Assembly: GCA_021734325.1 (NCBI GenBank)
Contig: JAIPJF010000007.1
Location: 62,001 to 126,000 of the forward strand
From: Fidelibacterota bacterium
GTDB taxonomy: Bacteria > Fidelibacterota > UBA8477 > JABMPR01
Direction: 5' to 3'
Length of the DNA stretch: 64,000 bases
The notes under the pieces are model-generated. The model searched no databases. It saw only the letters and a program-made list of their open reading frames with translations, and was not told the origin of the DNA. Below, piece after piece: positions 53,944-64,000 of the stretch (the first letter of the stretch is position 1; each line of letters begins with the position of its first letter). Made by a program: the position numbers and the translations under genes.

Positions 53944-54020
53944 GCTCCGGTAGCTCAGCTGGATAGAGCAACGGATTTCTAATCCGTAGGTCACAGGTTC
54001 GAGCCCTGTCCGGAGTACCA
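53944..54020 (+). tRNA. tRNA-Arg (anticodon TCT)
   Basis: Cloverleaf: acceptor GCTCCGG/CCGGAGT, D arm GCTCAGCTGGATAGAGC, anticodon stem ACGGA/TCCGT with loop TTTCTAA (TCT, reading AGA), T arm ACAGG-TTCGAGC-CCTGT, discriminator A and encoded CCA. A likely integration site for the downstream island. Confidence 0.95.
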
Positions 54021-54024
54021 CCTA

Positions 54025-54068
54025 AAACCCCTTATAAAACAACAGTTTATGAGGGGTTTATTTTTTAA
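54025..54068 (+). terminator. strong intrinsic terminator of tRNA-Arg
   Basis: Fourteen-bp stem AAACCCCTTATAAA (54025-54038) with TTTATGAGGGGTTT (54046-54059), 7-nt loop, one G-T pair, followed by A and TTTTTT. Confidence 0.9.
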
Positions 54069-54448
54069 TCCAGGGGTCACCAAATCATCATAATTCATCA
54101 AATATTATGCAAATAATGGGGTACAGGTGGGGAACGTTTTTTTGAATGAGCTCTCCTGTGACATCACAGGCGGATCAAATTGTCCAGGCATGTATTGACA
54201 CTCTCAGATGGCCTGATGCGTTTTTAGGGGGTATTTCGGGCGAAATGAGACCGTTTTTCTCTCGGGGAAGGATTCCCAGATTCTTTTTGGGTGGAACGGC
54301 GAATTGTAAAAGGCTCACCACTATCAATCGGTGAAGGGATGCTCTACTCCCGAGGTCTGATACCTGGAGGAGGCAAAAGAGTGTATTTGCGGCATAGTGG
54401 ATGACACTTAACTTGTCACCAATAAATTATATCAGCACCGACGCAAAA
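54069..54448. other. gene-poor start of the presumed island
   Basis: No supported gene; a 62-codon frame at 54146-54334 has no SD or similarity. It holds a tandem-like GGGGTAC-AGGT-GGGGAAC (54119-54135) and a perfect dyad CCTGTGACATCACAGG at 54155-54170. The area is where an attachment-site core or integrase remnant would be expected, but I see neither. Confidence 0.5.
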
Positions 54449-55600
54449 ATGAGACGACTCAACAAATATGTCCGCTTGGCTGGCGCAGGCTTTCTGCTCG
54501 CAAGCGTTACGCTGGCACAGAGTACCGACCCGGCCATGAACCCCTTCTTCCAGCCCAATGAAACAAGTTTCTACTACGGTAGCGGTGATGTGAATGGAGA
54601 TGGAAGTATAGACGTAGACGACTATTCCGCCATGGAGGCAGGTGTTCAAAACGACATGTCGGACATCGACGGCAACGGAACCCCATCAACGGCCAACGAT
54701 CTGTCCATCCTGAATCAATATTTGCAGGGCAGTATAGAATACCTCCCAGGGCACTGGAATTATCTGCAGGCACAGTCTGAACGTGAGTACTGGCTAGAAT
54801 CAATGTTAGCAATTGATGCTACAAGCGAGCTCCCATATCAAACAGGAGTATTCATTTCAGGAGATTATAGAACAGTAACCGAAATGAATTTTGCAGGAAG
54901 AATTAATCCAAACGACCCAAATATACCCTATAATCAGGATATCATTAATTTTGCACGATTCAATCTACCTGTTTATGGAGTTTCAGTAATTGATCCAAAC
55001 TCAAGCTGGGGTCATGGAATGGATGCAATATTAAAGGGCGAAAATCCTTTAAGCTGGGATGATTGGTCATTTGTAGAACCACAGAATGATGATATTAACG
55101 TTCAACCGGGGGGATGGAATATTCCGCACGGAACTTTGTTGGGCATAGATGTATTAGGGGGGTTCCAAGAAAATGGTAATAGGATTAACATAGCGATAGT
55201 AGCCTTTCAAATAGACGAAAATGGAATTCCTAGTTTATATCCTTTGGTGGGAACTTATCCAAATCCTGGTCTGATATTGGAACGCCCTGCTGTATCTGTA
55301 GATGACGAAGTTGAACATCCACTATCCTTCATACTTATTCAAAACTATCCCAACCCCTTTAATCCAAGCACTACAATTCATTATGATATCCCGACAGAAT
55401 CTTTGGTGCAGTTAGCTGTATACGATGTTCGTGGACGGCAGATCAAAACGCTGGTCAGTGAGGAAAAGCCTGCAGGCAGCTATGCTGTCCTATGGGACGG
55501 GTCGGATGACAGCGGAGCGCAAGTTAGTACGGGTGTGTATTTCGCCCGGCTACAAGTGGGCAATTATTCATGCACAATCAAAATGGTGTATTTGCCATAA
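54449..55600 (+). CDS. secreted protein with dockerin-like EF-hands and sorting domain
   Basis: 383 aa from ATG 54449 (frame open to 54401). Signal peptide RLAGAGFLLASVTLAQ. Residues ~45-100 (GDVNGDGSIDVDDYSAM, then DIDGNGTPSTANDLSILNQYL) are a dockerin type I-like pair of calcium loops. The middle (~105-280) is unrecognised. The C-terminus NYPNPFNPSTTIHYD, VYDVRGRQ, STGVYFARL is the type IX-like sorting module. Probably surface-displayed. Sorting-domain codon use differs from the two paralogous modules at 7.6 and 9.0 kb. Confidence 0.85.
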   Translation: MRRLNKYVRLAGAGFLLASVTLAQSTDPAMNPFFQPNETSFYYGSGDVNGDGSIDVDDYSAMEAGVQNDMSDIDGNGTPSTANDLSILNQYLQGSIEYLPGHWNYLQAQSEREYWLESMLAIDATSELPYQTGVFISGDYRTVTEMNFAGRINPNDPNIPYNQDIINFARFNLPVYGVSVIDPNSSWGHGMDAILKGENPLSWDDWSFVEPQNDDINVQPGGWNIPHGTLLGIDVLGGFQENGNRINIAIVAFQIDENGIPSLYPLVGTYPNPGLILERPAVSVDDEVEHPLSFILIQNYPNPFNPSTTIHYDIPTESLVQLAVYDVRGRQIKTLVSEEKPAGSYAVLWDGSDDSGAQVSTGVYFARLQVGNYSCTIKMVYLP

Positions 55601-55628
55601 TCACATTTGGTCAAGGAGAGCAACGTTT

Positions 55629-56330
55629 TTGAAATTTCAGCATAGCGAAGATTATCAGCATAGCGGCAAGTATCAGTATAGACTCAAAGAACTGAAACCA
55701 GTATTCTGGGCGCAGCTCATTGGTGGAGAGGGGGTTCAATATTGGTTTGAGGGGGAAGACCCGGATGAGATCCCAACTCAGACACTTACCCCTGATGAGA
55801 GAAGATACATTCATGAGGGACCACTCAGACCTCTCCTGAAGGACAAACGAACTGTTGATATCATGAAGGATTATGGCACAGAATATTGTGTCCATGACAT
55901 AAACAAACGGATTGCTAAAAGTCTGCTTGACGAATTTGAACAAATAGCGGAAACATGCCCCGAGAAATTATTGAGGCAGTATCTTGCTGCCATAGATCGT
56001 TTCTATCAATGGTTCTGGGAAAATAGGGAGAAAGGTGACGAAAAGCTCTTCACACGGTTCCTAAGGCACCTTCAACACCAGAGGCAGATCAGCCAGCAGC
56101 CAGCCACCTGGTATACACTTAGGGAAGCGGCTGCCTACTCAAGAACAGGTGTTACCAAATTACGCGAGCTGATCGATGTTGGAAAATTACGATCCTACCG
56201 GCTCGACGATGCAAAATCCAAATCGACTATTCTGTTGCACCGTAAAGATCTTGATGCAGTCATTCTCTTTGACAGATCCAGCGGCTTGACCAAGCGCGAA
56301 CAACAGAGACTCAAATCATATGGCAGTTAA
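55629..56330 (+). CDS. DNA-binding protein with C-terminal excisionase-type HTH
   Basis: 233 aa from TTG 55629, with AAGGAG at 55613-55618; the open frame to 55425 lies inside the sorting-domain gene. Residues ~155-215 (WYTLREAAAYSRTGVTKLRELIDVG..LRSYRL and LHRKDLDAVI) are an HTH_17/MerR-excisionase domain. The N-terminal 150 residues are helical and unrecognised. Single-domain excisionases are shorter, so this is a larger regulator or recombination-directionality factor. Island gene; no integrase beside it. Confidence 0.62.
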   Translation: MKFQHSEDYQHSGKYQYRLKELKPVFWAQLIGGEGVQYWFEGEDPDEIPTQTLTPDERRYIHEGPLRPLLKDKRTVDIMKDYGTEYCVHDINKRIAKSLLDEFEQIAETCPEKLLRQYLAAIDRFYQWFWENREKGDEKLFTRFLRHLQHQRQISQQPATWYTLREAAAYSRTGVTKLRELIDVGKLRSYRLDDAKSKSTILLHRKDLDAVILFDRSSGLTKREQQRLKSYGS

Positions 56331-57133
56331 AACATCAACAGTTAAATAGGAAGCCATTCAGGGGTCATCGGGTTTTGTGAATTATTTGCCTGTGAGCCAA
56401 AACGCGAATGAAGTGTAAAGACACCACCTAAGCTCACCATTATATACTTCATGCTACGTAGAAATCCAAAGAAGAGTACGAGTGATGTATCAATCGATAT
56501 TGTAATTTTGATCACTAAGGAAATTCGAGGGTGAGAGCTTGCCGGCCATAGCTGGATGTTCCACAATCGCAGGGGGAAATTGTTAATTGCGCTTGACCGG
56601 GGAAAAAGCTAGCCAGTAAGCTGTGAACAATTTTACCCGGACATGAGCAAAACTTCGCTTCGCTCATTTCTCCCTGGCCCTGGAAATGTGCCAACTCATG
56701 TCGGCAGGCTCGGTTTAATAGAAGCTCTAAAAGCAAGAGCAGCCGGTCAAGGTGATAAGAGTGCCTCACATCATTAAGCGAGGACATAGTTGATACATTC
56801 CTGGACATCTATTACAAACTATTTATTAATTATAATAATATAATAGAGAGGTTTCGCGTAAAAAAAAATAGAAATTCCCTTGTACTAAACTTTTCTGTTT
56901 TCAATAATAATATACCCTGATCGCCAGAATTATTTCACTCTGAAAATGAGGAATGGTACCAGATAAAGCCTCGAATAGAATATAGCGACATCAGAAAACG
57001 ATAAATGACACGGTAATGCATATATAAATTATCATCAATACTTAAATTGCTGTATGGAGCTGACATCAAAAATAGATAGATGTCAAATAGCGTATCTCAG
57101 GGAATATCTGAACAAGATTTTAGAAGGGGTTTT
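56331..57133. other. 803-bp gene-free A+T-rich stretch with repeat copy and inverted repeat
   Basis: No frame here has both an SD and protein-like content; minus-strand frames of 74 and 97 codons lack both. It includes a 24-bp near-copy (22 matches) of the 58.3-kb repeat at 56493-56516 and a perfect inverted repeat TGACATC...GATGTCA (57061-57067/57079-57085). It also holds a CGCGAATGAAG segment near 56403 that may mirror GCTCATTTCGCGAC at 58172-58185. Confidence 0.6.
56493..56516 (+). repeat. partial third copy of the island repeat
   Basis: Same orientation and 22 of 24 bases identical to the end of the copy at 58350-58401 (ends GTAATTTTGATCACT). Confidence 0.7.
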
Positions 57134-58084
57134 TTAGACCTTCGATTGATCCTTGAGGATTTTCACATACGATTTTGATTTTGGAAAGCTCCTGGTTTTC
57201 TTCATGAACACAATTGTTTGTATGTCCTCAGGAATATTATGATTGTGTTGCTTACAAACAAAACGTACTGTGCTCTCATACTCAGCAATTGAATCAAAGT
57301 GTTGTGATTTCCTTTTATCCCGGATGTATGAACTCAATTCTGAGAGCCCGGCTTTGGCCAGCTCCCGCCACCGAGGTGGGAATACCTGATCCTTTTCTAC
57401 AGGTAGGATATGGTGATGTTTGCAGAATAGTTTATAGGAACCATGCCCAGTAAATCTTGGACTGATAAATTTCTCTTCAAGCCGGGTTGGATGATGGTAG
57501 TGTGTTCTAGGTGAAATATCACTTTTCCATAGCGCTTCCTCAAAAAGATCAAGAATGTGATAGTGCGAATAATCCAATGTCGGTGCCAAGAAGATCCATT
57601 TGAACTTAGGGAAGTATCCAAAAAATAAAGAATGCTCATAGAGATGCCCACGAATGTAAATGGAAATTGGAGGTTCCAAATATCCAGTGACAAATAGATC
57701 ATCAGGATCATCCGGTGCAATTGAGTCAGCCACTCTGGTTTTGTAGGGTTTGGCACGCCACTCTGCCAACCGTCGTTGAAGTGTCCTCAGCATGGATTGA
57801 TTAAACTTGTTGGGCGAGTGCTTTATCAGGAAATTTAAAATCTTTTGACTGGTCGCCCTGGGATCCTCTTCTAATAATGGAACAACAAGAAGCTCCCAGT
57901 CATCATCAAAATGATGGGGCGCTGTGAAATGTCGTAGAGCTTTGATCTCGCTGGGGAGCCTATTCTGATTCTTGTATTTGTGCGCGGTGGAATAACAAAT
58001 TCCCAGCCTCCTGGATATACTTGCCAGGGACTCACCTCTTTTTAGCCGGAAGTGCAATTCCTCCACTATGGAATCAGTAAGCAT
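57134..58084 (-). CDS. IstA-like (IS21) protein without recognisable DDE catalytic residues
   Basis: 316 aa. N-terminal HTH (RGESLASISRRLGICYSTAH, about 18-37), then DDDWELLVVPLLEEDPRATS and MLRTLQRRLAEWRA, the IS21 transposase N-terminal pattern. After PDDPDDLF the catalytic core should show QxD(F/W)G, then a YDN, then a Glu. Instead PISIYIRGHLYEHSLFFGYF and THYHHPTRLEEKF occupy those places, so at least the two Asp are missing. Shorter than usual IstA (400-500). No istB follows. It may be decayed or domesticated as a DNA-binding protein. Confidence 0.72.
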   Translation of the reverse strand: MLTDSIVEELHFRLKRGESLASISRRLGICYSTAHKYKNQNRLPSEIKALRHFTAPHHFDDDWELLVVPLLEEDPRATSQKILNFLIKHSPNKFNQSMLRTLQRRLAEWRAKPYKTRVADSIAPDDPDDLFVTGYLEPPISIYIRGHLYEHSLFFGYFPKFKWIFLAPTLDYSHYHILDLFEEALWKSDISPRTHYHHPTRLEEKFISPRFTGHGSYKLFCKHHHILPVEKDQVFPPRWRELAKAGLSELSSYIRDKRKSQHFDSIAEYESTVRFVCKQHNHNIPEDIQTIVFMKKTRSFPKSKSYVKILKDQSKV

Positions 58085-58247
58085 TCAGCTTCTCCTGTAA
58101 CACATTTTTTAAACTCGAAATATCATATTTTATAGGCCACAATTTAGCTCGACTGGTTGAGTTTCGGAACGCTCATTTCGCGACTAACTTTGTCTGTTTG
58201 AATATCATGGATTCACTCACTCGGAATGATTCCAAATGAGCACAAAG

Positions 58248-58299
58248 GGCAAATATTTTGCCCATGTTGCTTCTATAGGAATCGTAGTTTTGATCACTT
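58248..58299 (+). repeat. direct repeat copy 1 (52 bp)
   Basis: 49 of 52 bases identical to copy 2. Includes the 17-bp palindrome GGGCAAATATTTTGCCC when the preceding G is counted, and ends in TGATCACTT. Confidence 0.9.
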
Positions 58300-58349
58300 A
58301 CTCATCTTTACTGAATACTCTCAATCAATGACACCGAAAAGACAAAAAT

Positions 58350-58401
58350 GGCAAATATTTTGCCCATGTTGCTTCTATAGATATCGTAATTTTGATCACT
58401 T
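58350..58401 (+). repeat. direct repeat copy 2 (52 bp)
   Basis: 102 bp downstream of copy 1, same orientation, three mismatches, with the dyad GGCAAATATTTTGCC. Confidence 0.9.
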
Positions 58402-58532
58402 GAGACAAAAATACTACACCTCTAGGAAAACTGAAAAAGCACTCGCTTTTCGGGTATATGAAAGATGCACAAAGAAGGTATTTCTTTGCCATTGCCAACA
58501 CCCAAAATTTTAAAAATAGAAGGAGAAAAATC

Positions 58533-58580
58533 ATGGATAAAAAGCTTGATCATTTCTCAAGGATTACCTATGAAAATTGA
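58533..58580 (+). CDS. possible 15-aa leader peptide upstream of RadC-like gene
   Basis: ATG 58533 has a better SD (AGGAGAAA, 58521-58528) than the RadC-like gene. It reads 15 codons (MDKKLDHFSRITYEN) and stops 8 nt after the RadC ATG, so translation could be coupled. A sequencing frameshift is an alternative explanation. Confidence 0.35.
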   Translation: MDKKLDHFSRITYEN

Positions 58581-59022
58581 CAAGGTCGCAGATCAACTGA
58601 TACTCGAAGAATACGTTCGAAGATTCACAATTCAAGCAGGAGAATCCATTCGATCAGCCAAAGAAGCTGCCAATCACTTCCGTGCCTTTTTTGCTGCAGA
58701 TGCTGCCAAGAAAGAGAAGTTCGTTGTTTGCTTTTTGAACGGACAGCACCAGGTGCTAACTACGGAGGTTCTGTTCGAGGGTTCATTGACGACTTCAGCG
58801 GTTTTTCCGAGGGAAGTGATTACCCGTGTTATCGAATTGGGATCCGCGGCAGTGATACTTGCTCACAACCATCCGAGCGGTTGCCTCACACCATCCTCTA
58901 GTGACAGAGCAGTCACCAAGAAGTTGCAAACGGCACTGGAAGCGATCGATGTGGAAACCCTCGATCATTTGGTTATCGGTGGCAGTGAGCATTACAGCTT
59001 CGCAGATAATCGTTTACTCTAA
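58570..59022 (+). CDS. short RadC-like JAB/MPN-domain protein
   Basis: 150 aa from ATG 58570 (AAGGA at 58559-58563). JAMM metal site: LAHNHPSG (His99, His101) and SSSDRAVTKKL (Asp112); DHLVIG and YSF at the end. It lacks the helix-hairpin-helix N-terminus of housekeeping RadC, like the short versions (YkfG/YeeS-type) carried by plasmids, phages and islands. Role unknown; despite the name, not shown to act in repair. The larger in-frame ORF to 58465 has no SD. Confidence 0.88.
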   Translation: MKIDKVADQLILEEYVRRFTIQAGESIRSAKEAANHFRAFFAADAAKKEKFVVCFLNGQHQVLTTEVLFEGSLTTSAVFPREVITRVIELGSAAVILAHNHPSGCLTPSSSDRAVTKKLQTALEAIDVETLDHLVIGGSEHYSFADNRLL

Positions 59023-59057
59023 AACCCCAACCAGCTCACCTCAATAAGGCAGCTCAC

Positions 59058-59073
59058 CGGAACATCTGTTCCG
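59058..59073. promoter_or_regulatory. perfect 16-bp dyad CGGAACATCTGTTCCG, operator candidate
   Basis: Lies between the RadC-like and DUF932 genes. The centre GAAC-N4-GTTC fits the Gram-positive-type LexA box core; it may equally be the site of an island repressor. Confidence 0.5.
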
Positions 59074-59131
59074 AAGATCCTGTCTTTTGGAACACAAACT
59101 CTAACAAGAAAAAAACAGACAATTTAGGGAT

Positions 59132-59194
59132 ATGAAGTATGGGAGAGACTATCTGCTCCCAGAACCGCATATTCAAAAAAAAACAGGAGAATGA
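59132..59194 (+). CDS. possible 20-aa leader peptide upstream of DUF932 gene
   Basis: ATG 59132, 20 codons, stop TGA 59192-59194 overlapping ATG 59191 of the next gene as ATGA. The SD (TAGGGA) is too close to be convincing. Confidence 0.3.
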   Translation: MKYGRDYLLPEPHIQKKTGE

Positions 59195-59196
59195 TT

Positions 59197-59928
59197 ATGA
59201 CTATGCTTTTACATCAAGGCGGAGAAGAATGTTCGTTGGAAGATCTAAAGAACATTCCATTGCCAGTAGAAACCAGGAGCTACAAGCCGGTTTCACATTA
59301 CGATCTCTCGGTCAACATCGCCAGAGTAGCCAGCGAGCTGCTGAGAGAGTTTACGCTCCAAAATAGCCAATTTGGTGTTGCCAAGTCGGGAGCACAGCTC
59401 TTTGCTGTTCACACCTTCAAAAATGCGAATGAAGAACTCGGTCTTTCCATTGCCTTCAGGAATTCACTGGACAAGTCTCTATCTGTCGGTATGGCATTTG
59501 GGGCGCAAGTGTTTGTCTGTGACAACCTGGCACTCACTGGTTCTATAGTTAAAATTCGCAAACATACTACCAATGTTCATACGGATCTGGAAGAGATGAT
59601 TCTCACCGGTGTCTATCGAGCTAGGACATCTTTCATCAGCGCTGTTGATGATGCTGGAAAGATGAAACAGATCGAGATCGCAGATGATGGGGCTTATCGA
59701 GCCCTGGGGCACCTCTTCGGTCACAAGGTCTTATCACCGAGACAGATGCCTGTTGCCTTGAAGGAATGGCATCACCCGTCACATCAAGAGTTCGAGCCCA
59801 GAAATTTGTGGTCACTGTTCAATTCGGTAACAGAAGCTCTTAAAACGTCACCACCACAAAGCATCATGGAAAAGCACATCGGCCTGCATCAGCACCTGCT
59901 GCCGAATCAAGCGAGATGGCAGGCATGA
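59197..59928 (+). CDS. DUF932 (phage/plasmid-like) protein
   Basis: 243 aa from ATG 59197 (AGGAGA at 59185-59190; ATG 59191 and 59203 are also in frame). DUF932 pattern: ELGLSIAFRNSLDKSLSVGMAFGAQVFVCDN-type core, with VFVCDNLAL and IRKHTTNVHTDLEEMI. This family is carried by plasmids, phages and ICEs, often near RadC-like and recombination genes. Molecular role unknown. Its stop overlaps a small ORF (ATGA). Confidence 0.85.
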   Translation: MTMLLHQGGEECSLEDLKNIPLPVETRSYKPVSHYDLSVNIARVASELLREFTLQNSQFGVAKSGAQLFAVHTFKNANEELGLSIAFRNSLDKSLSVGMAFGAQVFVCDNLALTGSIVKIRKHTTNVHTDLEEMILTGVYRARTSFISAVDDAGKMKQIEIADDGAYRALGHLFGHKVLSPRQMPVALKEWHHPSHQEFEPRNLWSLFNSVTEALKTSPPQSIMEKHIGLHQHLLPNQARWQA

Positions 59929-60065
59929 ACGGCCAGCATATCAAGGCCCTGATCGTCATGGGTCTGCAGTTCTTGGCTACAATTGCAGAGATACTATTCA
60001 CTAAACCCATAGAAAAAGCAAAGGAGGACTCTCATGACAAAGCAAGAGATCCTGGAAACGATTGA
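59925..60065 (+). CDS. possible 46-aa small membrane protein
   Basis: ATG 59925 overlaps the DUF932 TGA (ATGA). The 46-aa product has one hydrophobic helix (IKALIVMGLQFLATIAEILF) then a charged tail, and the frame runs 32 nt into the nuclease gene. Supported by coupling and the hydrophobic profile, not by homology. Confidence 0.4.
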   Translation: MNGQHIKALIVMGLQFLATIAEILFTKPIEKAKEDSHDKARDPGND

Positions 60066-60945
60066 GCTGAGACAGTCAACTCTGAAGACCTGGTTATCAT
60101 GCCCACTCATGTACAAGTTCAGGCATATTGACAAACTGGAACCGGCTTTCAGGTATCCAGGGACAGTACATGGATCTGCGCTCCACCTGGTCCTCTCCTG
60201 GCTCCATGAAGGCCTCTGGAAGGGTGATCTGAGGTCTCTGTATACCAAAGCCCTCAATTATCAACTCTATGCCTCAGAGGAGGAACATATCCCTGTTCGC
60301 TGGGGAGGAGAGATAGACAAAGAGATAGAAGCTCTCAAGGTCAATGCGGTGGAGATTCTGGAGAACTATCGAAGCAAATCGTACAATCGAGATGCTTTGG
60401 TCCTGTTCTCAGAGGTACAGTTCAGAGTGAAGATACTGGGATACCTGTTCACGGGAACCATCGATCAGGTTCGAAAGAATTCCGATGGAACTGTGGAGTT
60501 ATTGGACTTCAAATCATCGAAGATGCGGCCCAATCAGTACGCCATACCCAATGACCTGCAGCTGACACTGTATGCCTATGCCTGTAAATTCGGAGAACTA
60601 CTTGTTGATGGCATCTGGGTTAAGCCAAATATGCTGGTCGATTCCGTCGGGATCTACTTCCTGCGGGCTCATGAAGGCTATAAACGCAAGACCGGAAACA
60701 GTAATGTGGGTGATGAGAAGGGCGATCCCTTCTTCAGAACCACCAAGAGCATTCAGGATCTGCGTGCATTTCGAACAGAGATACGCCACCAGCTCTCTGC
60801 CATGGTCAAACCTTGGTACTACCCCAATACGGCGAGCTGTGCCTTCTGTAGCTATACAGCGCATTGTATTGGTCGAAATGATAACCTGCCAACAGACCAG
60901 GCTGAGGAAGCCCAGGAGCTGTTGGCTGAATTAAACATGGCATAA
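60034..60945 (+). CDS. RecB/Cas4-like PD-(D/E)XK nuclease with probable Fe-S cysteines
   Basis: 303 aa, strong SD AAAGGAGG. STLKTWLSCPLMYKFRH carries the first Cys (23). The nuclease core has Glu127, Asp144 in TGTIDQV and Asp158-x-Lys160 in LLDFKSSK, with QLTLYAYA as the Q-x-x-x-Y motif. C269, C272 and C278 (CAFC then HC) complete the four-Cys arrangement seen in AddB and Cas4. Likely processes DNA ends. No CRISPR or cas gene is near. Its TAA overlaps the next ATG (TAATG). Confidence 0.88.
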   Translation: MTKQEILETIELRQSTLKTWLSCPLMYKFRHIDKLEPAFRYPGTVHGSALHLVLSWLHEGLWKGDLRSLYTKALNYQLYASEEEHIPVRWGGEIDKEIEALKVNAVEILENYRSKSYNRDALVLFSEVQFRVKILGYLFTGTIDQVRKNSDGTVELLDFKSSKMRPNQYAIPNDLQLTLYAYACKFGELLVDGIWVKPNMLVDSVGIYFLRAHEGYKRKTGNSNVGDEKGDPFFRTTKSIQDLRAFRTEIRHQLSAMVKPWYYPNTASCAFCSYTAHCIGRNDNLPTDQAEEAQELLAELNMA

Positions 60946-61679
60946 TGCCAGAAGGGAAAACAATGGAACATCAATTAATCGAAACCGACACAGTCAAGCA
61001 GGCTTTGTCTGTTGCCGGGTGGGATATGGAAATGGAACTGGCCGGCATGGCTGTTGGGACATCTCAGTTTGAGCTGCCCAGAGTTCGCATAGAGCATAAG
61101 GATAATGGAAAACATCGGATGTATATCGATTCCGGTGAGAGCTATCTGGATGATCAATCCCAGGAGATCGAAATACCTGGCAACAAGCTGAATGCTGTAG
61201 TGTTTGCTGAACAGAATATCCGTGCATTCTGGAAAGAAGGCGACGAGGTCCCCGCCTGTTCTGGCATCGATGATATGCCGATTGGCATAGAACCATTGGC
61301 AGTTAGTTGTAAACGCTGTGAGCATGGTGTCATGGGTGGAAAATGCAAGCCCAAGGTACGTCTGCTCCTGCTGGCTGAGAATGACGGTGAGATCAAACCA
61401 CTGATCATGAATCTGTCACCAACATCCATCAAGCACTGGAATGTTCACAAGAAAAAGCTGGCAAGATCTAATCTTCCAGTGGTTGCCGTTAACACAACAT
61501 TCGAGTTAGAGGATGTGAAGAAAAATGGCTTTCGTTGGGCAGAAGTGAAGCTTGGAATGGATGGAATCGCTTCACGAGAGTTGCTGGTCATCGCCAGAAC
61601 AGCGCGGAATGAGCTGGAAGAGTTCACCAAGCAGATTTCCAAAAGTGATTTCGATGATTCAGGAGATAAGCAAGATTAA
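60945..61679 (+). CDS. zinc-binding mobile-element protein, ssDNA-binding-like
   Basis: 244 aa, coupled to the nuclease; ATG 60963 is a second in-frame start. Four cysteines (C105, C122, C125, C134; PACSG...CKRC...GKC) form a probable zinc ribbon, followed by beta strands (KVRLLLLAE, PLIMNLSPTSIKHWNV). I recall this layout from phage and conjugative-element proteins of replication/recombination modules, but cannot name a family. Acidic C-terminus (DFDDSGDKQD) as in ssDNA-binding proteins. Confidence 0.6.
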   Translation: MPEGKTMEHQLIETDTVKQALSVAGWDMEMELAGMAVGTSQFELPRVRIEHKDNGKHRMYIDSGESYLDDQSQEIEIPGNKLNAVVFAEQNIRAFWKEGDEVPACSGIDDMPIGIEPLAVSCKRCEHGVMGGKCKPKVRLLLLAENDGEIKPLIMNLSPTSIKHWNVHKKKLARSNLPVVAVNTTFELEDVKKNGFRWAEVKLGMDGIASRELLVIARTARNELEEFTKQISKSDFDDSGDKQD

Positions 61680-61683
61680 CAGC

Positions 61684-61711
61684 TTGCCTCATTTTAAAGC
61701 TAAAGTAATTT
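61684..61711 (+). promoter_or_regulatory. candidate promoter of the structured RNA
   Basis: TTGCCT (61684-61689), 16-nt spacer, TAATTT (61706-61711); predicted start near 61718, at the first base pairs of the outer RNA stem. Inference. Confidence 0.4.
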
Positions 61712-61716
61712 GCTCC

Positions 61717-61865
61717 CGCCAGACAGTTATCATGCCAAGTTAAATAAAAGCTTGGCCTTCGCAGAATATCAAGTGGGCATCATTGCCCCTTGGAGCAACT
61801 CTGCGGAGTTAAAATCGGTGACTGTCTGGCGACACCACTTGAGGCTTCAAGGGCTTTTTCTTTTT
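61717..61865 (+). ncRNA. candidate structured non-coding RNA of unknown class
   Basis: Nested perfect helices: outer stem CGCCAGACAGT (61717-61727)/ACTGTCTGGCG (61821-61831). Hairpin GCCAAGTT (61734-61741)/AGCTTGGC (61749-61756) abuts a 9-bp stem CTTCGCAGA (61757-61765)/TCTGCGGAG (61800-61808). That stem carries hairpin CAAG-T-GGGCA/TGCCCCTTG (61770-61792) with loop TCAT. The result is a three-way junction of ~115 nt, then a short hairpin and T-tract to 61865. No protein-coding frame fits. It could also be a DNA-level inverted-repeat element. Confidence 0.6.
61838..61865 (+). terminator. weak terminator at the end of the structured RNA
   Basis: CTTGA (61838-61842)/TCAAG (61847-61851) with loop GGCT, then GGC and TTTTTCTTTTT. 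Stem is short, T-tract good. Confidence 0.5.
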
Positions 61866-61898
61866 AGCTCTCAAGTACAACCTAGACTTGGGGCTTAG

Positions 61899-61997
61899 AT
61901 GATGAAGAACCCTACTTTTTATTTTCTGATTATCGGATATACCCCCCTACTCGCTGCAGATGAAGTAGTGTCCATGGCCATCGGCAAGAGAGTCTAA
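61899..61997 (+). CDS. possible 32-aa small hydrophobic ORF
   Basis: MMKNPTFYFLIIGYTPLLAA then a polar tail, like a signal peptide. It lies between the structured RNA and the GTPase. SD is poor. May be chance. Confidence 0.25.
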   Translation: MMKNPTFYFLIIGYTPLLAADEVVSMAIGKRV

Positions 61998-62030
61998 AGA
62001 GAATCGTGGCCAATAAACGGAGGATTAAAT

Positions 62031-63263
62031 ATGGATCACAGCGCACTTAAAGAGACACTGGAAGAGCTATTAAAACAATTTGATAGACTTCCTGACCCCC
62101 CCAGGGAAACCTTAAGAAATGAATTCCAAAAATTATGGGAGCTGATCGTGGATGTTAGTAATCCGTGTATAATTATCACAGGTCGTAGAGGAGCTGGAAA
62201 ATCGTCGCTAATTAATGCAATATTTAAGTCAAAAGTCAGTGCAACTGGTCCAGTGTTGTCCAAGACGGGAGAACCCGTTTGGCATAACTTTAAGAATAAA
62301 AAAGGAACAATGGAGATCTTGGACACAAGAGGATTGGGTGACAGGACAGTGCCTGACTCGGCAGAATTTAAAGATGCCATTGATGAGATAAAAAATGCCA
62401 TTAAAAAGAAGAAACCACATGCAATGCTCTTCCTGTGTAAAGCTCAAGATGTTGATTCTCACATTATGGCAGATATGATTTATTTGAATGAAATTCAGGA
62501 GTATATTAACAAAACATACGCGTACAACATTCCACTCATAGGGCTGGTAACTAAAGTTGATGAACTCGAGCCGATAGATGAAAATGTACCTCCTTATGAT
62601 GATGAGGAAAAACAGGAAAACATCAATACCGCGGTAAAAGCACTAGCTGATTCCTTCATAGAGTCAGAAGTGGAATGTATGAGAGTAATTCCTGTTTCAG
62701 CATATACTAGATTTAACGAGCAAGACGAGCTCTCTAGTAGTCGAATCTGGAATATTGACCTATTGACAGATTATTTGATTGATGTGTTACCCGAAAGTGC
62801 TCAATTAAGATTTGCTAGATTGTCTGCAATTGAGGGACTTCAGATGAAGCTGGCGAACAAGATAGTGTTCAGTACAGCCACATTATGTGCCGGAATTGCT
62901 GCAACACCTATCCCAGTGGCCGATATTTTACCGATTACATCAGCACAGGTTGGAATGATCATCTCTATTGCATATTTAGCTGGCCGTCAGCTTGATCGTG
63001 AGAATGCGAAAACTTTTCTGACAGCAATAGGAATAAATGTAGGTGCTGGGTATTTGGTGCGCGAATCAGTCAGAGCAATTGTGAAATTTGTATTCCCTGG
63101 AGCAGGGAACGCGGTTTCAGCAGCGATGGCATTTGCTGGCACAGCGGGTATTGGTAAGGCTGCCGCAGCGTATTTTATTGAGGGGAAGAATGAAGAAGAA
63201 GCGAAAGAGATTTTCAATAAGGGTTATAAAAATGCCAAGAAGGAGTATAATCAGGACTCTTGA
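62031..63263 (+). CDS. GTPase with C-terminal DUF697 membrane domain
   Basis: 410 aa, SD CGGAGG at 62018-62023. G1 GRRGAGKSS (51-59), G3 DTRGLGD (98-104), G4 TKVD (174-177), G5 SAY (223-225): Era/Toc34-like TRAFAC GTPase. From ~270, ATPIPVADILPITSAQVGMI, a Gly/Ala-rich pair of hydrophobic segments and KAAAAYFIEG match DUF697 (YcjF-like). It probably docks on or acts at the inner membrane. The gene is A+T-rich compared with the chromosomal part. Role unknown. Confidence 0.85.
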   Translation: MDHSALKETLEELLKQFDRLPDPPRETLRNEFQKLWELIVDVSNPCIIITGRRGAGKSSLINAIFKSKVSATGPVLSKTGEPVWHNFKNKKGTMEILDTRGLGDRTVPDSAEFKDAIDEIKNAIKKKKPHAMLFLCKAQDVDSHIMADMIYLNEIQEYINKTYAYNIPLIGLVTKVDELEPIDENVPPYDDEEKQENINTAVKALADSFIESEVECMRVIPVSAYTRFNEQDELSSSRIWNIDLLTDYLIDVLPESAQLRFARLSAIEGLQMKLANKIVFSTATLCAGIAATPIPVADILPITSAQVGMIISIAYLAGRQLDRENAKTFLTAIGINVGAGYLVRESVRAIVKFVFPGAGNAVSAAMAFAGTAGIGKAAAAYFIEGKNEEEAKEIFNKGYKNAKKEYNQDS

Positions 63264-63348
63264 AGCAGCATGATAAGCAAATAATTGTGGCGAAGCCCAC
63301 TTTTAATTTTCTACCAAACTGGATTGTCAGTTAGAGGTATATAACACC

Positions 63349-63918
63349 ATGAACACAACTTCGTCGTCACTCCAACTCGGATATGATAAGTTTGAGAATG
63401 TTCCAAATGATATTGGTTCTGCTGAAGTATTCTCTTTTACTGGTAATTTGAAGTGCCCTCATTGTGGCATATTATTACTTGACGCTCAAAGATGGGATCC
63501 TGAGAAAAGCATGATGAATGCAGGCGTTGGTGATTGTCCTCATCTTCTTTATGCATTTGCACTCGATCGGGAGTGGAGAGCACCTGAATTTTTGTCAGTA
63601 AGAACCGATTATGCGAAAGCTTATGTAGCAGCACTTGTAATATCACCACAATATAGTGAGAGTCTATTTAAGTGGAAATTGTCTCCACTCAAGGGTAGAG
63701 AAATTGCAGAATTCGGGTCGGGAGATCTAAAATATTCCACTGACTTTGAGGACTATCCTACGGTTGGGCACCGTGTAGCTCAATGTGGCTGGCATCTTCC
63801 CTCCGTCGCGATCCCAGAAGTTCTTCCAAATAACACAATTATTTTTGTTACCGGGAAATCTACAACCATCCATTTTGCGATCTGTCCATCAGTGGAAGAT
63901 ACTGTAAAGCTGCCTTAA
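63349..63918 (+). CDS. unknown protein with zinc-knuckle-like CPHC motif
   Basis: 189 aa. Cysteines CPHC (36-39), DCPH (63-65), QCGW and ICPS suggest metal binding. Otherwise unrecognised: LYAFALDREWRAPEFLSVRT and a C-terminal beta part ending VEDTVKLP. No signal peptide or membrane segment. It follows the GTPase by 85 nt on the same strand and may be its partner. No strong SD (TTAGAGGT at 63333-63340 is possible). Confidence 0.5.
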   Translation: MNTTSSSLQLGYDKFENVPNDIGSAEVFSFTGNLKCPHCGILLLDAQRWDPEKSMMNAGVGDCPHLLYAFALDREWRAPEFLSVRTDYAKAYVAALVISPQYSESLFKWKLSPLKGREIAEFGSGDLKYSTDFEDYPTVGHRVAQCGWHLPSVAIPEVLPNNTIIFVTGKSTTIHFAICPSVEDTVKLP

Positions 63919-64000
63919 CCGGGCTGGGCAGTGGTGCCTGGCTAGAAGTTGCCCCCAAGGAGTGGATCACTGCAGGAAGCTCATTTGAGGGTCCTGGAAC

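What the first reader, a model, noticed from the sequence alone, without database searches (positions are those of the whole stretch)
61684..61865. Free-standing, deeply structured RNA gene of no recognised class in the island
Four mutually compatible perfect or near-perfect helices fold ~115 nt into a closed three-way junction. There is a promoter-like pair whose predicted start coincides with the outer stem, and a T-tract follows. It sits between a nuclease/zinc-protein pair and a membrane GTPase, with no coding alternative. I could not match it to tmRNA, 6S, group I/II introns, retron msr-msd (no reverse transcriptase seen), crRNA or common riboswitches. It could be the RNA part of an undescribed island system.
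Basis: partly seen in the sequence, partly recalled or inferred. Interest (0 to 1): 0.75.

Follow-up and report, generated by a model that had tools for sequence, protein, structure and literature searches.

The report
New switch-like RNA before island genes
A folded RNA with a conserved start-like signal and a stop-like end sits in front of one accessory gene in a DNA island, and its relatives, found so far only in the same bacterial phylum, keep the same fold in front of quite different genes, so it is probably an undescribed on/off switch for such genes.

Summary
Window 61684-61865 folds at z = -6.95 and matches no Rfam family. It belongs to an RNA family: 27 copies in 20 of 245 genomes of Candidatus Neomarinimicrobiota, two more found later. 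Over 31 aligned rows 94.6% of cells pair and 27 of 31 pairs change on both sides (0/500 shuffles). A TAANNT box starts 27 of 27 copies with upstream sequence, with TTG 16-18 nt before it in 25. The 3' tail covaries with both strands flanking an internal hairpin (a pseudoknot; 0/5000 each), not with itself overall (4165/5000). Its last G-run is followed by a T-rich stretch in 26 of 26. The next ORF lies on the same strand in 24 of 25 copies, the previous one in 8 of 23. Those genes are unrelated. In one sister island the flanking genes lie about 260 nt apart, without the RNA and its GTPase gene. Best reading: a promoter-leader unit with a conditional terminator, rather than a stand-alone RNA gene. 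Transcription and termination are untested, and simple consensus scans find neither promoter nor terminator here.

The parts
61684..61689 (+). -35-like box TTGCCT
   Evidence: sequence; TTG 16, 17 or 18 nt before the -10-like box in 25 of 27 copies, against 13 of 837 at other offsets of the same stretches; not accepted by the consensus scan
61706..61711 (+). -10-like box TAATTT
   Evidence: TAANNT in 27 of 27 copies with upstream sequence; models R2 and R3 held this box, R1 did not, and all 8 copies of R1 have TAATTT
61717..61831 (+). RNA core: P1 (61717-61731/61817-61831) closing P2 (61734-61741/61749-61756) and P3 (61757-61765/61800-61808)
   Evidence: fold; P1 96.9% and P3 92.7% of cells paired over 31 rows, 13 of 14 and 8 of 8 pairs with double changes; P2 only 69.6% paired over 8 rows and not in model R3
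61770..61792 (+). P3b hairpin, CAAG-U-GGGCA/UGCCC-CUUG
   Evidence: 92.7% of cells paired, 6 of 9 pairs with double changes
61769..61776 (+). segment A (TCAAGTGG), partner of A*
   Evidence: A:A* own pairs better than re-dealt ones, 0/5000 over 25 copies
61787..61795 (+). segment B (CCCTTGGAG), partner of B*
   Evidence: B:B* own pairs better than re-dealt ones, 0/5000 over 25 copies
61835..61842 (+). segment A* (CCACTTGA) in the 3' tail
61845..61865 (+). segment B* (CTTCAAGGG, 61845-61853) followed by T-tracts 61855-61865: terminator-like end
   Evidence: at least 4 T in the 10 nt after the G-run in 26 of 26 copies, mean 6.04, against 28% T further on
61870..61893 (+). CTCAAGT (61870-61876), complementary to A* and to the SD-like ACTTGGGG (61886-61893)
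   Evidence: sequence; similar relation read by eye in G001, G013a, G011 and G165; not tested statistically
61899..61997 (+). possible 32-aa leader ORF with a signal-peptide-like start
   Evidence: coding not tested
62031..63263 (+). downstream gene: GTPase (MMR_HSR1) with C-terminal DUF697
   Evidence: Pfam
58465..61679 (+). island genes before the RNA: RadC, DUF932, PD-(D/E)XK nuclease, unnamed zinc-type protein
   Evidence: Pfam; the last has no Pfam or NCBIfam match, 'zinc-type' is from its cysteines only
63349..63918 (+). island gene whose homologue follows the zinc-type gene directly in sister genome G010
   Evidence: comparison

Best explanation
It is one copy of an undescribed structured RNA family of Candidatus Neomarinimicrobiota that works as a promoter plus attenuator leader for the gene behind it. 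Transcription starts at the foot of P1. The nascent RNA folds P1, P2, P3 and hairpin P3b. Its 3' tail (A*, B*) then pairs back with the two strands flanking P3b (A, B), giving a pseudoknot whose GC-rich B:B* helix stands directly before a U-rich stretch, so that most transcripts should end near 61865. When the tail does not pair back, polymerase reads on into the accessory gene (here the DUF697 GTPase). Shown by sequence: fold, covariation of P1, P3, P3b, A:A* and B:B*, conserved start boxes, G-run plus T-rich stretch, conserved place before a co-directional ORF. Inferred: transcription, termination, and that the A:B and A:A*/B:B* states switch. The trigger (protein, small molecule, or the RNA of another element) and the polarity are unknown.
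For: Covariation over 31 rows: 27 of 31 pairs with double changes, score 0.702 against 0.195 +/- 0.013, slid controls at most 0.106. Re-deal test over 25 copies: A:A* 0/5000, B:B* 0/5000, A:B 0/5000; controls A:B* 2051 and B:A* 3359; tail on itself 4165. A:A* also holds within f31 plus G105 (5/5000, 8 copies) and among 7 others (6/5000); B:B* within f1 (0/5000, 7 copies) and among the 7 others (0/5000). T-rich stretch 26 of 26. Start boxes. Next ORF co-directional 24 of 25, previous 8 of 23. RNA kept before homologous genes in distant genomes: G013 and G220 (69% protein identity), G165 and G124 (63%, 70%), three paralogous lipoproteins of G230.
Against: No transcript data. The consensus scans find no sigma-70 promoter and no hairpin terminator at this place in the window; the one plus-strand terminator-like hit (61670-61687) lies at the end of the preceding gene. 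A:A* is not significant within genus g1 (1261/5000) and B:B* not within f31 plus G105 (496/5000), where the letters hardly vary; among the 7 others the tail on itself has some support (122/5000). In an earlier version of the test with longer segments (19 copies) one intended control, B with the 5' tail, was also 0/5000; it vanished with tighter segments. In several g1 copies the T-rich stretch is short or interrupted. Homologues of the accessory genes often lack the RNA: it was found at 2 of 11 places of the 133-aa protein and 4 of 20 of the lipoprotein, one of these decayed. The crossing topology was not modelled in 3D. Few unpaired bases are conserved.
Confidence: 0.52

Rival explanations
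1. A discrete, stand-alone RNA made by the element and acting in trans, for example on the leaders of other elements in the same cell or with an element protein; the gene behind it is only a passenger.
For: Conserved start boxes and terminator-like end; several copies in one genome (three in G015, two in G013, five in G230; a sixth in G230; a second in G223). A/A* and B/B* could also pair between molecules. No gene partner is constant.
Against: Strong same-strand bias for the following ORF only; the RNA stays with homologous genes over large distances.
Confidence: 0.27
2. A metabolite or ion riboswitch (a leader whose core binds a small ligand).
For: Leader position, junction architecture, terminator-like end, pseudoknot.
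Against: The downstream genes examined share no pathway; junction bases vary between families.
Confidence: 0.12
3. A single-stranded DNA hairpin site used by a recombinase or for replication or transfer of the element.
For: Several copies lie near integrases, primases or RadC; RNA plus gene is present or absent together; copies in G165, G150, G133, G122 and G220 lie within about 240 nt of a contig end; in G079 an imperfect AT-rich 23-nt repeat (83%) flanks tRNA-Val, RNA and gene.
Against: G-U pairs are tolerated in the helices; conserved start boxes and T-rich end; fixed orientation to the next ORF; two copies sit in ordinary chromosomal surroundings (G079, G124; names by reading).
Confidence: 0.07
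4. Chance inverted repeats or a decayed mobile-element end.
For: None beyond the island setting.
Against: Covariation over 31 rows and homologues in 16 of 84 genera.
Confidence: 0.01

Closest known systems
Transcription attenuators and terminator-type riboswitch leaders (kind recalled, not from a call)
   Same: Start signal, folded leader, competing pairings, terminator-like end, gene behind on the same strand
   Different: No Rfam match; the strand closing the terminator-like helix lies inside a distant hairpin (B in P3b), so the helix is a pseudoknot and the simple terminator scan misses it; it accompanies unrelated accessory genes; ligand unknown
Phage P4 immunity leader and CI RNA (recalled; seen as a listing only)
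   Same: Leader of a mobile element with complementary segments that decide premature termination; a short terminated RNA could act on sister elements
   Different: No sequence or gene homology tested; as recalled, the P4 leader controls replication genes, here mixed accessory genes
Retron msr-msd RNA (recalled)
   Same: Long closing stem around two hairpin domains, start signal right before it, gene behind
   Different: No reverse transcriptase family in the 45 neighbouring or window proteins scanned with Pfam
Type III toxin-antitoxin RNA (recalled)
   Same: Structured RNA and terminator-like end before a gene
   Different: No tandem repeats in 61400-62200; no ToxN family among the downstream proteins scanned

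Membership tests
Any Rfam 15 family | covariance model match | tested here: not met
   no match to the element in window 54000-64000 at E up to 5, nor to the element in 8 loci holding relatives at E up to 1, where the only hit is a neighbouring tRNA
Attenuator / terminator-type leader | promoter-like start at the 5' helix | tested here: inconclusive
   boxes conserved in place (27 of 27 and 25 of 27), but below the threshold of the sigma-70 consensus scan in the window
Attenuator / terminator-type leader | GC-rich helix strand followed by U-rich stretch | tested here: met
   26 of 26, helix B:B* 0/5000; not a simple hairpin terminator
Attenuator / terminator-type leader | mutually exclusive alternative pairings | tested here: inconclusive
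   A:B, A:A* and B:B* are all supported, but whether they alternate or coexist is not decidable here
Attenuator / terminator-type leader | co-directional gene right behind | tested here: met
   24 of 25 against 8 of 23 upstream. Six of the 24 ORFs as scored begin inside the RNA; five of these have a later start with an SD behind it, G105 does not
Riboswitch | specific small-molecule ligand | not testable with these tools
   needs binding experiments
Retron | adjacent reverse transcriptase | tested here: not met
   Pfam on 45 proteins shows none; 10 ORFs of 392 scanned carry a YxDD-like motif, 9 of them are among those 45 or are homologues of them, and one in G230b has no family
Type III toxin-antitoxin | tandem repeats in the RNA gene | tested here: not met
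   0 rows from Tandem Repeats Finder on 61400-62200; tested in the window copy only
Integron attC site | R and L boxes of attC recognised by IntI | not tested
   an integron integrase lies 4.3 kb from one copy but attC boxes were not searched for
P4-type immunity RNA | trans action of the processed leader RNA | not testable with these tools
   needs experiments

The most novel reading that the evidence does not exclude
A self-contained promoter-RNA module that travels with accessory genes of mobile elements through one bacterial phylum, keeps them silent by a pseudoknotted terminator, and lets co-resident elements recognise each other through their A/A* and B/B* segments: an RNA-based cargo-silencing or immunity code.
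Probability: 0.2. Interest if true: 0.85.

Novelty: new variant of a known kind. Interest (0 to 1): 0.62.

Why it matters
It adds a structured RNA family with clear covariation from a mostly uncultured phylum. It suggests a leader type tied to the mobile gene pool rather than to a metabolic pathway, with a terminator-like helix closed by a pseudoknot that simple terminator scans miss. If the switch is real, it would explain how incoming elements keep unrelated cargo genes under one control, and the natural compensatory changes give a ready set of tests.

Tried and rejected
Blast of the RNA against plasmids gave nothing and against phages only 21-nt matches at E 0.6. blastn on 60 relatives listed 41 with some match at E up to 1; all but the own and three others are short (36 bits or less) and were taken as chance. 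Genome-wide pattern scan: 22 loci, 6 of them known copies; R2 gives nothing above 11 bits in the other 16. The pattern recovers only 6 of the 27 copies, so absence outside the phylum is weakly tested. Viral contigs: 28 loci by a shorter pattern, one at 19.4 bits, not followed; 1 locus by the longer pattern, no model match. Two genomes (G154, G155, 22 bits) were judged by eye to be coding sequence and dropped; they are not among the 20. The tail-hairpin reading (A* with B*) was my first idea and was dropped. tRNA-end attachment in G079: no repeat of the tRNA end, but an imperfect AT-rich 23-nt repeat flanks tRNA, RNA and gene. A metabolic theme for the downstream genes: none seen. A cassette-array reading of G003 C28: only two imperfect repeats of 26-27 nt. 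Protein structure prediction was not used. One search keeps two weak rows of A11 (the reverse strand of L133, 21.1 bits, and the decayed G231 copy, 18.9 bits), as rows cannot be dropped there, and A11 was fitted to the model. In one search, 3 of 28 copies fell out: G015b and G230f (no P3b found by the script) and G122 (no tail). In one search, G122 (no tail) and G133 (7 nt of tail) were not counted. One search covers 27 copies, of which G133 and G122 end at the contig edge.

Full report
WHAT WAS CHECKED. The stretch 61684-61865 was read and folded on both strands. The plus strand has -72.2 kcal/mol, z = -6.95, with no shuffle of 200 as low; the minus strand z = -5.44. No Rfam family matches it (window 54000-64000, E up to 5; three weak hits elsewhere). 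Simple consensus scans of 61500-62100 find no sigma-70 promoter (0 against 0.6 expected) and no terminator at the end of the RNA; their only plus-strand terminator-like hit is 61670-61687, at the end of the preceding gene.

RELATIVES. blastn over 60 related genomes gave partial matches in three genomes of the same genus (G015, G013, G011) at E 7e-8 to 2e-5, besides short ones; in two of them the element lies on the minus strand of the locus. A covariance model from four sequences (R1) found 8 copies, the four seeds and four new ones, in 5 of 19 genomes of the genus. A second model (R2, 8 sequences) matched 19 of 245 genomes of the phylum, two of them judged false. A third (R3, 20 sequences) found 27 copies in 20 of 245 genomes and 16 of 84 genera. 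A laxer search of 35 of these genomes added none, but later searches of fetched loci turned up a sixth copy in G230 (L138, 34 bits), a second in G223 (L131, 49.8 bits) and a half-decayed one in G231 (L151, 18.9 bits; its P1 5' arm no longer matches). So the counts are lower bounds. The own genome has one copy. Record titles name the phylum: of the 6 known copies hit by an exact-pattern scan of genome contigs, 5 are titled Candidatus Neomarinimicrobiota and one only 'bacterium'. The other 16 loci of that scan give nothing above 11 bits. The pattern recovers only 6 of 27 copies, so confinement to this phylum is a provisional finding.

COVARIATION. On the 8 sequences of A8: 89.0% of cells paired, 19 of 38 pairs with a change on both sides (1/500 shuffles as high), score 0.423 against 0.205 (0/500). 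On 31 rows of A11, fitted to the model and so leaning towards it: 94.6% paired, 27 of 31 pairs with double changes, score 0.702 against 0.195, slid controls at most 0.106. P2 is paired in 69.6% of cells of A8, is not in R3, and is rebuilt differently in the fold of G001.

THE TAIL. By eye, the 3' tail carries A* (61835-61842) and B* (61845-61853), complementary to A (61769-61776) and B (61787-61795), the strands flanking and partly forming P3b. To test it, each copy's segment was paired in silico with its own partner and with partners re-dealt among copies (25 copies). A:A*: -11.1 kcal/mol own, -8.5 re-dealt, 0/5000. B:B*: -18.6 against -14.2, 0/5000. A:B: -13.3 against -9.6, 0/5000. The tail with itself (A*:B*): 4165/5000, no support overall, though 122/5000 in the group of seven others. 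Controls A:B* and B:A*: 2051 and 3359. Inside subgroups: A:A* 5/5000 in f31 plus G105, 6/5000 among seven others, 1261/5000 in f1; B:B* 0/5000 in f1 and among the others, 496/5000 in f31 plus G105. Where a test fails the letters hardly vary. A first version with longer segments (19 copies) gave 0/5000 for A and B with the tail, but also for one intended control (B with the 5' tail), which is why it was repeated. Two copies outside the test, G230f and G223b, show the same complementarity on reading. The order A, B, A*, B* makes the pairs cross, so the 3' end closes as a pseudoknot, or these pairings alternate with A:B.

ENDS. TAANNT is present in 27 of 27 copies with upstream sequence, and TTG stands 17 nt before it in 23, 16 in one (the window) and 18 in one; at other offsets of the same stretches TTG is found 13 of 837 times. 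R2 and R3 contained the TAANNT box, so for copies they found this is partly by selection; R1 lacked it and its 8 copies all have TAATTT. After the last G-run, 26 of 26 copies have at least four T in ten (mean 6.04; 28% T in the following leader). In several g1 copies the stretch is interrupted; several f31 copies have a clean run.

WHAT FOLLOWS IT. The nearest ORF of at least 90 aa downstream is on the same strand in 24 of 25 copies, the nearest upstream one in 8 of 23. Six of the 24 ORFs as scored start inside the RNA; in five a later start with an SD lies behind it, in G105 none. The one exception, G001, is at a contig end. The genes examined differ: GTPase with DUF697 (window); FISUMP lipoprotein, HNH protein, DUF1232, PLD-like protein, and weakly (below the Pfam cut-off) LPP20-like and PEGA-like proteins; Sel1, beta-helix-like and LamG proteins. 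Several have no family. Many begin with a signal peptide or membrane helix on reading; no predictor was run. One (G015c) matches the candidate defence family PDC-S30 at 277 bits. The RNA keeps company with homologous genes: the LPP20-like gene has 4 places in 245 genomes; the RNA is right before it in G013 and G220, two genes before it in G230, and the fourth, in G227, has only 760 nt of contig before it. The 133-aa protein has the RNA at 2 of 11 places, the G230 lipoprotein at 3 paralogues plus the decayed G231 one, of 20 matches of which several are fragments. So RNA and gene are linked but not inseparable.

THE ISLAND. In the window the RNA follows RadC, DUF932, a PD-(D/E)XK nuclease and a zinc-type protein. 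The zinc-type protein has 30 matches in 11 of 245 genomes. The DNA behind it was printed for eight loci; in two (L179, L183) the stretch did not begin at the gene's end, and what follows differs from locus to locus. In G010, whose copy is 89% identical, the homologue of window gene 63349 starts about 260 nt after the stop of the zinc-type gene (299 nt as measured, from 39 nt before the end of the stop codon), with no RNA and no GTPase; in the window 1,669 nt lie between the same two genes. This is one sister comparison; it does not tell gain from loss, nor where the borders are. Other copies lie near integrases, DnaG-type and AEP-type primases, a sliding clamp and Avs2. G079 (between a S41 protease gene, and a thrS-like gene) and G124 (after an aroE-like gene) look like ordinary chromosome (names by reading).

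MECHANISM. The anatomy (start boxes, folded leader, GC-rich helix plus U-rich stretch, co-directional gene) fits a transcription attenuator best. Polarity is not known: B:B* before the U-rich stretch suggests that the pseudoknotted state terminates, while A:B alone would leave B* free. There is a further layer read by eye: CTCAAGT (61870-61876) can pair with A* or with the SD-like ACTTGGGG (61886-61893); a similar triple complementarity appears in G001, G013a, G011 and G165. This was not tested statistically. What sets the switch is unknown; the junction is poorly conserved in sequence, which speaks against a classical ligand pocket and leaves a protein or another RNA copy as candidates.

LITERATURE. 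Four searches were seen as listings only: 15 of 2,428 papers, 15 of 17, 2 of 2 and 10 of 1,421. None of those listed names this family in its title or the start of its abstract; no paper was opened, so this is a thin test of novelty beside the Rfam result. Statements about attenuators, P4, retrons and type III systems are recalled.

Noticed in passing
L026 16054-17004 (G015 C140): An integron integrase (TIGR02249, 404 bits against a cut-off of 265) lies 4.3 kb downstream of one RNA copy, on the opposite strand.
   Followed up: partly
G230 and G231, places: The last 34-45 codons of the lipoprotein gene recur alone at seven other places in these two genomes, as if the gene's 3' end were an integration or exchange site.
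   Followed up: no
window 58225-58401 and 56483-56516: A 75-nt near-repeat (84%) 102 nt apart and a related 34-nt copy 1.8 kb upstream, on either side of the HTH-like gene 57134-58084; could be ends of a small mobile element.
   Followed up: no
L128 3993-8528 (G230): A full-length Avs2 defence protein (1596 bits) directly upstream of and divergent from one RNA copy.
   Followed up: partly
window 60945-61679: The zinc-type island protein has no Pfam or NCBIfam match but is multi-copy in this genus (7 matches in G009, some partial), marking a family of related islands.
   Followed up: partly
L030 11912-14354, L028 10333-12894, L033 351-2546, L172 9569-11998: A recurring pair, a DUF5659 or similar small protein plus a DUF5906 primase-like protein, lies near several RNA copies (L172 by reading only).
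   Followed up: partly
L071 4502-4596 (viral contig): A weak 19.4-bit match to the RNA model in an IMG/VR contig; may be chance.
   Followed up: no
L086 10002-10024 and 11288-11310 (G079): An imperfect AT-rich 23-nt repeat flanks tRNA-Val, the RNA copy and its gene.
   Followed up: no
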